From Leptospiraceae bacterium (lineage in GTDB: Bacteria > Spirochaetota > Leptospiria > Leptospirales > Leptospiraceae), in NCBI GenBank assembly GCA_015075105.1, contig JABTUZ010000001.1, forward strand, positions 445,001-509,000: 64,000 nucleotides of DNA, written 5' to 3'. Within the stretch, counting starts at the first letter, position 1; each line of letters opens with the position of its first letter. The notes under the pieces were generated by a model. It saw nothing but the letters and a program-made list of their open reading frames with translations. It had not been told where the DNA came from and did not search any database. Positions 3,629 through 4,975 of this stretch are shown in pieces. The position numbers and the translations under genes are program-made.

Positions 3629-3735
3629 AGTCTCAAAAAAAATCAATTATTACCTGAAAAGTTACAATTAGAAACGAAATGCGCAATATAAGGAGATTTT
3701 GTGAACCTGAAAAAACTTGACAATCCGGAAAATTT
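3629..3735. repeat. Direct repeat B, copy 2 (~107 bp)
   Basis: Second copy of 2144-2251. It again carries AAGGAG and a GTG (3701) beginning MNLKKLDNPEN, but homology stops near 3735 and phage-derived sequence follows in another frame. It lies between the brnT promoter region and the MuF remnant. Confidence 0.8.
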
Positions 3736-4664
3736 TTCGGAACTCTCACAAGACTTGAACAAACCGAATCCGGCATTCCGGGCTATATCTGGAAAATCAC
3801 CGGTTATCACACGCGAGACCAACACTCCAAACTCGCCGCAACATTTCACTCATGGGACAAACGCCCGAAAATGCTCTACGGCACACGCACAACCGAAGCC
3901 CATCCCGGCGAAGACTATAACTGCCGATGTTGGGCAGAACCTGCCTTCGGAGACGAACCGGACACCAAACCCTGGAAGGACGAGTGGACTGCTACTGGCT
4001 CCGAGCAAAGTCTGAGTGCCGGAGCATCCGATGTTTTTAACAATCAAGCCACAGGAAGTTTTAAGTCTTCAATTAAAGATATATTTTCTTCTATTGACAG
4101 TGCTCACGGATTCAAAAAAAATATCGATGTGGTTCCAATTAATGAATACAGAGACTACTCAGGTACAGGTGGAACTTTGGGCTACCATCCTTTGACCAAA
4201 AACCCTGTCTTTATCGAAATCAATAAACATCCGGTTCACAAGGATTTTCTTGAATTGAATACCGCCCATGAAATAGGGCATTTTGTTGATCTCGAAGTTT
4301 TGGGAAACAAAGGCTCTTTTTATTCGGAAACGCCTTTTATGAGTGAATTTTTTCTGGCGATAGAAGAAACAAACCCTGTCCAAAAATTAAGAGAGGCTCT
4401 AAGAACTGGACTATTCAGAAATGATTTATTGCGACAGGATAGAAGAAATCATATCCGTTATTTGCTCAACAAACAGGAGTTATGGGCAAGGGCATATTCT
4501 CAATATATTGGAACGAAAAGCAAAAATAAAAAAATCCTCGACGGGGTCAAAAAACATTAGCGAAGGATAATTTAGACGGACTTTCCCAATGGGAGGAAGA
4601 GGACTTCAAGAAACTGATTTCCATCATCGATAATATTTTTGAAAGGGAGGGGCTTTTAAAATGA
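3721..4664 (+). pseudogene. Truncated phage MuF-type head protein with C-terminal HEIGH zinc-protease domain, frameshifted
   Basis: In the frame after a TGA at 3718-3720, the sequence resembles the conserved end of SPP1 gp7/Mu gpF head-morphogenesis proteins: GYIWKITGYHTRDQHSKLA, then HPGEDYNCRCWAEP with its paired cysteines. Most of the MuF domain is missing; repeat B ends where the fragment begins. A linker leads to a protease-like domain with HEIGH at 4267-4281 and a later ELWARAYSQYI that could give the third zinc ligand. MuF proteins with such toxin tails are known from phages and polymorphic toxins. The frame ends at 4560. The -1 frame then continues as TLAKDNLDGLSQWEEEDFKK to a TGA at 4662-4664 that overlaps the next ATG. 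This points to a one-base loss, or slippage, near the A6 run at about 4550. From ATG 3871 the protease domain alone (229 residues) could still be made. Confidence 0.65.
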
Positions 4665-4975
4665 CAAGCGAACAGATTTCCGCAATGGAAGAGATCAAAA
4701 AAATATTTAAGAAATACAAAACAGGCCCTAATGAAAAATGTTTTATGACAAAATCGTTTAGGGGTAAGGTAAAGGAAACAGACCGTCAAAGAGTTCAGGA
4801 ATTGTTGCCCCTCCTCGATGCAGGTCTTCCCAAAGAACTTGATGATTTTATTGAATTAAATTACTCTGGATCAGTTTGGGGAGGTCCGGATTTAATCGCC
4901 GTCGATGACGATGGGAATGAACTACCCTATAAATTCGACGATGGAAGTGAACTTCAATATAAATTCGAGAGATAA
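4661..4975 (+). CDS. Small acidic protein, candidate immunity partner of the MuF protease
   Basis: This 104-residue, acidic C-terminal protein has a strong GGGAGG site upstream. Its ATG overlaps the restored stop of the preceding protease frame (ATGA), so the two were translationally coupled. The central LPKELDDFIELNYSGSVWGG recalls SMI1/KNR4-like immunity proteins, though it is too short to be sure. A near-duplicated phrase (ELPYKFDDG, ELQYKFER) closes the protein. In polymorphic-toxin loci the gene directly after a toxin usually encodes its inhibitor. Function is inferred only from position and composition. Confidence 0.5.
   Translation: MTSEQISAMEEIKKIFKKYKTGPNEKCFMTKSFRGKVKETDRQRVQELLPLLDAGLPKELDDFIELNYSGSVWGGPDLIAVDDDGNELPYKFDDGSELQYKFER

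What the first reader, a model, noticed from the sequence alone, without database searches (positions are those of the whole stretch)
3721..4975. Detached phage MuF effector: zinc-protease tail with a coupled candidate immunity gene
The window keeps only the last part of a MuF/SPP1 gp7 head protein (HPGEDYNCRCWAEP) followed by an HEIGH protease-like domain. A 104-residue acidic protein follows, with its ATG overlapping the restored stop of the protease frame. MuF proteins with C-terminal toxin domains are known in phages and polymorphic toxins. Here the head part is gone, no other phage structural gene is near, and repeat B abuts the break point. That suggests the toxin/immunity pair was moved and kept, or is decaying, outside a phage. 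The seen parts are the motifs and the overlap; the toxin and immunity roles are inference.
Basis: partly seen in the sequence, partly recalled or inferred. Interest (0 to 1): 0.7.

Follow-up and report, generated by a model that had tools for sequence, protein, structure and literature searches.

The report
Detached phage protease-effector tail with partner
A phage head protein's protease tail and the small gene that normally rides with it have ended up, without the rest of the phage, among toxin-antitoxin genes and gene fragments in a bacterial chromosome; the protease frame is now broken, but the small gene, probably its immunity or inhibitor gene, is still intact.

Summary
Window 3721-4024 is the C-terminal end of a phage MuF minor head protein. 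It is followed by a confidently predicted zincin-fold domain (HEIGH) and a 104-aa gene overlapping the final stop by 4 nt. There is no MuF start. The tail frame breaks at about 4520-4560; its last residues lie in the -1 frame.

(1) The same genome carries an intact MuF-zincin gene plus overlapping small gene in a prophage remnant. The shared 303 nt are 89% identical (dN/dS 0.05), then tail and small gene change completely: the signature of a swapped C-terminal effector module. (2) The tail is widespread in phages (23 genome loci, 70 viral contigs). An overlapping 46-108 aa ORF follows in 65 of 78 cases, against 36 of 247 control ORFs. Eight close short MuF genes lack one, and partners co-vary with tails. 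About half form one small acidic family matching neither Pfam nor PHROGs; the window's gene is probably a distant member. (3) A Hymenobacter genome without MuF carries such a tail and partner beside an integrase gene.

Best reading: an orphan MuF effector/immunity module, toxin broken, partner intact, analogous to orphan cdiA-CT/cdiI. Toxicity and immunity remain inferred.

The parts
3637..3735 (+). Repeat B copy 2 (copy 1 at 2153-2251); its last 15 nt coincide with the start of the MuF homology
   Evidence: direct repeat, 95% identical, only two copies in the genome
3721..4024 (+). C-terminal ~101 codons of a phage MuF minor head protein, no start codon
   Evidence: phrog_4529 E 4e-62 for the piece; 89% nt identity to intact L001 over 303 nt, dN/dS 0.046
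4025..4560 (+). Zincin-fold tail domain (candidate effector), missing its last ~29 residues in this frame
   Evidence: AlphaFold2 pLDDT 91.7; zincin matches; 80-sequence alignment
4267..4281 (+). HEIGH motif (H183, E184, H187 of the translated piece)
   Evidence: invariant in 80 relatives
4477..4503 (+). ELWARAYSQ motif: E253 (near-invariant, possible third zinc ligand), R257 and Q261 (invariant)
   Evidence: ligand role is inference
4520..4560 (+). A-rich stretch in which the tail frame is lost
   Evidence: frames against intact relatives
4575..4664 (+). C-terminal end of the tail, in the -1 frame, with its stop codon
4645..4652 (+). GGGAGGGG, a likely ribosome-binding site for the partner gene
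   Evidence: sequence, 8 nt before the ATG
4661..4975 (+). 104-aa partner gene, candidate immunity or inhibitor protein
   Evidence: 4-nt overlap with the tail's stop; partner-family profile 8.7 bits, 1 of 20,000 shuffles as high
2428..2832 (+). Neighbour: PIN-domain protein (toxin of a putative TA pair)
   Evidence: PF01850 E 1.5e-4, just below the curated cut-off
2984..3506 (-). Neighbour: BrnT toxin and CopG-type antitoxin
   Evidence: PF04365 E 1.4e-17; PF12441 E 0.0026, below cut-off
5023..6561 (+). Neighbour: C-terminal part only of a type I restriction R subunit
   Evidence: PF12008 E 6.6e-74; phrog_3830 positions 667-1028 of 1032

Best explanation
The region is a detached ('orphan') C-terminal module of a MuF polymorphic effector. 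In the parent phage the MuF domain would place the protein in the virion head; the zincin tail would enter the next host with the DNA and cut a target there; the overlapping small gene would encode the protein that keeps the tail harmless in the producing cell. By recombination the last ~100 MuF codons, the tail and the partner became separated from the phage and now lie among toxin-antitoxin genes and a restriction-gene fragment. The protease cannot now be made in its normal form (no MuF start, broken frame), while the partner can in principle be translated from its own ribosome-binding site. Shown: MuF and zincin identity, the tail/partner exchange against the same genome's prophage copy, conservation of the gene pair in phages, the frame break, the intact partner frame. 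Inferred: virion delivery, toxicity, immunity function, and whether the partner is expressed or under selection.
For: Intact prophage paralogue with different tail and partner in the same genome; abrupt end of identity and GC step at 4024; dN/dS 0.046 in the shared part; zincin fold; overlapping partner in 65 of 78 relatives versus 36 of 247 controls; partner absent after eight short MuF genes and present after three long ones in the same genome slot; tail and partner similarity correlated, Mantel p 5e-4; detached tail/partner pair in Hymenobacter BT559, no MuF in that genome; anatomy equals orphan cdiA-CT/cdiI modules (PMC3150448).
Against: No function tested. The 104-aa gene has no clear homologue by BLAST or phmmer and its profile match is weak (8.7 bits). 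The 5 kb upstream of the window is unreadable, so a larger prophage remnant there is possible. The third genomic MuF copy is plainly decaying, which makes plain decay likely here too.
Confidence: 0.72

Rival explanations
1. A plain relic: the last scrap of a second decayed prophage, with both genes on the way out and no present function.
For: No MuF start, broken tail frame; a third MuF copy in the genome is decayed with stops; the neighbourhood holds other fragments such as the R-subunit C-terminus.
Against: Homology begins and ends sharply and no other phage gene was recognised nearby; the partner frame and its ribosome-binding site are intact.
Confidence: 0.4
2. The small gene is not immunity but an assembly helper or chaperone of the MuF-zincin protein in the phage head, co-inherited with the tail.
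For: Half of the partners form one family across many phyla, more uniform than expected for one-to-one polymorphic immunity.
Against: It follows the tail, not the head domain: absent after short MuF genes and kept with the MuF-less Hymenobacter tail.
Confidence: 0.2
3. A functional stand-alone toxin-antitoxin or anti-phage pair, with the full tail made by slippage in the A-rich stretch or the frame break being an assembly error.
For: A-runs at the break and the exact -1 relation of the frames, with conserved C-terminal residues still present; neighbours are PIN and BrnT toxin-antitoxin genes; the Hymenobacter detached pair has open frames and a possible own start.
Against: No canonical slippery heptamer in phase (sequence); no start with a ribosome-binding site for the tail frame, ATG 3871 lacks one.
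Confidence: 0.1

Closest known systems
MuF polymorphic toxins of temperate phages (Jamet et al. 2017, PMC5576092; Apk2 and Bxa, PMC11699363)
   Same: MuF head domain with exchangeable C-terminal enzyme domain, metallopeptidases included (20% of that set), and a small ORF of under 150 aa directly downstream (89.4%)
   Different: The window copy lies outside a recognisable prophage, lacks the MuF start and has a broken tail frame; that survey placed 96% of bacterial muf genes in prophages or their remnants
Orphan cdiA-CT/cdiI modules (Poole et al. 2011, PMC3150448)
   Same: C-terminal fragment without start codon, retained stretch of the conserved carrier gene upstream, different tail from the full-length copy, immunity gene with its own Shine-Dalgarno site
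   Different: Carrier is a phage head protein, not CdiA; the module is not directly behind the full-length gene but elsewhere in the genome; no function shown
phrog_4529 'minor head protein and DNA pilot' and the zincin/LPD1 domains of polyvalent phage proteins (Iyer et al. 2017, PMC5512222)
   Same: Same family over head part and tail (E 4e-62); LPD1-like match around the conserved ExxARAYxQ region
   Different: LPD1 and PF04233 scores of the window piece are below their curated cut-offs; only the C-terminal half is present
M34-type zincins (nearest solved folds)
   Same: Zincin fold with HExxH helix, Z about 8 over about 130 residues
   Different: 12-17% identity, Z barely above unrelated zincins; no evidence for shared substrate or host; membership not claimed

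Membership tests
MuF polymorphic toxin family | MuF domain | tested here: met
   Only its C-terminal end remains (PF04233 positions 68-110 of 112, 18.3 bits, below cut-off), but phrog_4529 E 4e-62 and 96% aa identity to the intact L001 MuF
MuF polymorphic toxin family | C-terminal enzyme domain that varies on a conserved head domain | tested here: met
   Zincin fold; same MuF with another zincin tail in the same genome, 24% identity; other tails in the same slot elsewhere
MuF polymorphic toxin family | Small ORF directly downstream | tested here: met
   104 aa, 4-nt overlap
MuF polymorphic toxin family | Located in a prophage or phage | tested here: inconclusive
   No phage gene recognised among the neighbours tested; 5 kb upstream unreadable. 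The paralogue L001 is in a prophage remnant
MuF polymorphic toxin family | Toxicity neutralised by the small protein | not testable with these tools
   needs experiment
Orphan CT/immunity module (as in CDI) | Toxin fragment lacks its translation start | tested here: met
   Stop codon at 3718-3720 directly before the homology; first in-frame ATG 3871 without ribosome-binding site
Orphan CT/immunity module (as in CDI) | Homology to a full-length carrier gene ends sharply before a different tail | tested here: met
Orphan CT/immunity module (as in CDI) | Immunity gene has start and Shine-Dalgarno site | tested here: met
   GGGAGGGG 4645-4652, ATG 4661
Orphan CT/immunity module (as in CDI) | Immunity protein expressed and protective | not testable with these tools
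   needs experiment
Zincin metallopeptidase | HExxH and zincin fold | tested here: met
M34 peptidase family | Specific similarity above other zincins | tested here: inconclusive
   Z 8.4 versus 7.6 and lower for other zincins
LPD1 (PF18796) | Score above curated cut-off | tested here: not met
   16.9 bits against 27 for the window piece; 32 of 80 relatives match at E 0.01
Small partner family (profile built here) | Profile match better than chance | tested here: inconclusive
   8.7 bits; reached by 1 of 20,000 shuffles and 1 of 2,437 other ORFs; only the C-terminal part aligns well

The most novel reading that the evidence does not exclude
Phage MuF zincins across many phyla carry a dedicated, previously unnamed family of very small acidic inhibitors encoded in an out-of-frame overlap, and bacteria keep detached tail/partner copies as protection against phages that inject these proteases.
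Probability: 0.15. Interest if true: 0.7.

Novelty: new variant of a known kind. Interest (0 to 1): 0.45.

Why it matters
Orphan effector/immunity modules are well known for contact-dependent inhibition and Rhs systems; the MuF papers read here do not describe them for phage MuF effectors. If confirmed, phage virion effectors follow the same rules of modular exchange, and bacterial chromosomes may hold immunity genes against phage-injected enzymes. The pairs collected here (about 65 in phages, with one recurrent partner family) make the immunity hypothesis directly testable.

Tried and rejected
Integron cassette: repeat A contains a GTTAGGC-like sequence, but no integrase in the genome passes the integron-integrase cut-off; dropped. 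Small gene as a chance ORF: rejected because overlapping partners recur in 65 of 78 relatives. Homologues of the 104-aa gene by sequence: none in phages, plasmids or viral contigs, and in 393 phylum genomes only two hits at E 0.004-0.009 inside long unrelated frames. Structure of the 104-aa protein alone: pLDDT 53, not interpretable. Single-sequence viral-contig scans with the window tail and with L001 found nothing; the four-sequence alignment A3 did. L045 (Planctomycetales) as a detached pair: not used, because an in-frame stop sits just upstream and the contig is short. L029 (Deinococcota) has a short tail-only ORF but its contig starts close upstream, so it was not counted as detached. A canonical -1 slippery heptamer at the break: not in phase (by eye).

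Full report
What is there. Window 3721-4024 encodes, without a start codon, the last ~101 residues of a MuF minor head protein (QSGKFFGTL...HPGEDYNCRCWAEP...SLSAG). Window 4025-4560 continues in frame into a domain with HEIGH and ELWARAYSQYI motifs. PHROGs places the whole 279-residue piece in one family, phrog_4529 'minor head protein and DNA pilot', E 4e-62, profile positions 212-495 of 533. Pfam sees the truncated MuF only weakly, positions 68-110 of 112, E 0.0041. The open frame stops at 4560. The conserved C-terminal end of the family (consensus QWxxxDFxPIxxAIDxLFxxxGW) is present in the -1 frame as QWEEEDFKKLISIIDNIFEREGLLK and stops at 4664. The 104-aa gene starts at 4661 (ATGA overlap), with GGGAGGGG 8 nt upstream of its ATG. 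So the effector has neither a MuF start nor an unbroken tail, while the partner gene looks translatable. Whether the break is a mutation, a slippage site or a sequencing error cannot be decided here.

A relative is in the same genome. A search of the window's own genome with PF04233 found two other places. At C2:1371099 (L001) there is an intact 491-aa MuF protein with a different zincin tail (HETYH). It is preceded by terminase and portal genes (L003), followed by DUF2213, cement and capsid genes (L004), and directly followed by an overlapping 67-aa gene that matches phrog_10218. At C2:291427-292228 there is a third, decayed copy: a MuF piece plus a tail with stops, closest to L001's tail (41% identity), now next to genes with pretoxin HINT domains. 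Window and L001 share 303 nt with 32 differences, 26 synonymous and 6 nonsynonymous (dN/dS 0.046). Identity then stops abruptly at codon ~101: the tails are 24% identical and the small genes give no BLAST match to each other. GC falls from 54% to 36% at the same point, and the same step exists in L001. This is what an exchange of a C-terminal effector/partner module on a conserved carrier looks like. The low dN/dS says that most of the divergence built up while both MuF copies were under selection, so the detachment is probably recent (inference).

The tail is a real zincin. Eighty relatives keep H183, E184, H187, R257 and Q261 without exception, and E253 in at least 90%. AlphaFold2 with 70 aligned sequences gives pLDDT 91.7 and pTM 0.88. 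The best viral structure match is a phage head-morphogenesis protein, E 2e-7, TM 0.78 by query. In the PDB the nearest are M34-type zincins at Z about 8, only slightly above other zincins, so the fold is supported but the peptidase family is not. A profile search of solved chains also hits metalloproteases around the HExxH.

The pair is widespread in phages. With a four-sequence tail alignment, 23 loci in genome contigs and 70 in viral contigs were found; 74 of 80 aligned proteins, the window piece included, match phrog_4529. An overlapping ORF of 46-108 aa follows 65 of 78 tail genes, most often starting 13, 4 or 10 nt before the end of the tail gene. Among other ORFs of at least 200 aa in the same loci the figure is 36 of 247. 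The 13-nt overlap arises because the conserved Gly-Trp near the C-terminus provides an NTG start out of frame (by eye). Forty-four of the candidate ORFs fall in one small acidic family with a GD[VI] motif; members tested match neither PHROGs nor Pfam at cut-off. The rest fall into several other groups. Tail and partner similarities correlate (Mantel p 5e-4, and p 0.001 among distant pairs). The window's 104-aa protein scores 8.7 bits against the family profile. One of 20,000 shuffles and one of 2,437 other ORFs score as high, and the well-aligned part is the C-terminal GPDLIAVDDDGNELP. I call it a probable, not proven, distant member.

Control for the head domain. The nearest MuF homologues in phage and plasmid records lie in the same slot, between portal and prohead protease. 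Eight short MuF proteins (about 180-320 aa; FP_Brigit, Mulock, BgManors32, YP3, AAM37, phi1422, LBR48 and a Criblamydia plasmid) have no overlapping gene of under 150 aa behind them; BgManors32 and LBR48 are followed closely, without overlap, by ORFs of 97 and 89 aa. Three long MuF proteins with tails each have a directly overlapping small gene: B054 with its own HESGH tail and a 56-aa gene, Pmp2 with 72 aa, ctfzr933 with 35 aa. The numbers are small but agree with the published 89.4% versus 25.5% (PMC5576092). The small gene goes with the tail, not with the head domain.

A second detached pair. In Hymenobacter sp. BT559 (L044) a zincin tail gene with its overlapping 66-aa partner follows a tyrosine integrase gene. 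It has a possible own start with an AGGA site before it, and PF04233 finds no MuF in that genome. So tail and partner can be found together without the head domain.

Neighbourhood in the window. Upstream lie a PIN-domain gene (2428-2832) and a BrnT/CopG-type pair (2984-3506, minus strand). Downstream lies the C-terminal part only of a type I restriction R subunit (5023-6561), then an aminotransferase gene and ordinary chromosomal genes. Repeat B abuts the junction: its last 15 nt coincide with the first 15 nt of the MuF homology, so the junction may have formed by short-homology recombination, or copy 1 may be a later duplicate. About 5 kb just upstream of the window reads as N.

How it probably works, and how far this is shown. 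In published MuF work the head domain is proposed to carry the tail into the virion and the recipient cell, with small downstream proteins as immunity (PMC5576092; PMC11699363). For CDI, orphan modules lack start codons yet still express the immunity protein (PMC3150448). The window fits the same anatomy. Delivery, target, toxicity and protection are not shown here. The most likely present-day state is a dead effector with a possibly working partner, so the locus is either a silent relic or a leftover immunity gene. The orphan-module history and the relic rival are not exclusive: the first says where it came from, the second that it no longer does anything. I put the orphan-module history at about 0.72.

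Noticed in passing
L004:11312-19133 (own genome, C2 ~1.382-1.390 Mb): A run of genes that looks by eye like a CRISPR-Cas type I-C set (Cas3-, Cas8-, Cas7-, Cas5-, Cas4/Cas1- and Cas2-like) lies just beyond the prophage remnant that carries the intact MuF gene, after an IS3-like transposase pair.
   Followed up: no
L005:10487-15302 (own genome, C2 ~0.2915-0.2963 Mb): A third, decayed MuF plus zincin-tail piece lies next to two genes with pretoxin HINT domains, one also with an M23 peptidase domain.
   Followed up: partly
window 2035-2107 and 2894-2966: Repeat A (74% identical pair with TCCGTGCGTTAGGCGCTC) alternates with repeat B around the PIN-domain gene; origin unexplained.
   Followed up: partly
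window 5023-6561: Only the C-terminal part of a type I restriction R subunit is present, fused to an unrelated N-terminal stretch.
   Followed up: partly
L044:2593-4608 (Hymenobacter sp. BT559): MuF-less zincin tail and overlapping partner directly behind a tyrosine integrase gene, with an IS-type transposase gene beyond.
   Followed up: partly
L006:4987-10000 (directly upstream of the window): About 5 kb reads as N in the held genome, so the left context could not be read.
   Followed up: no
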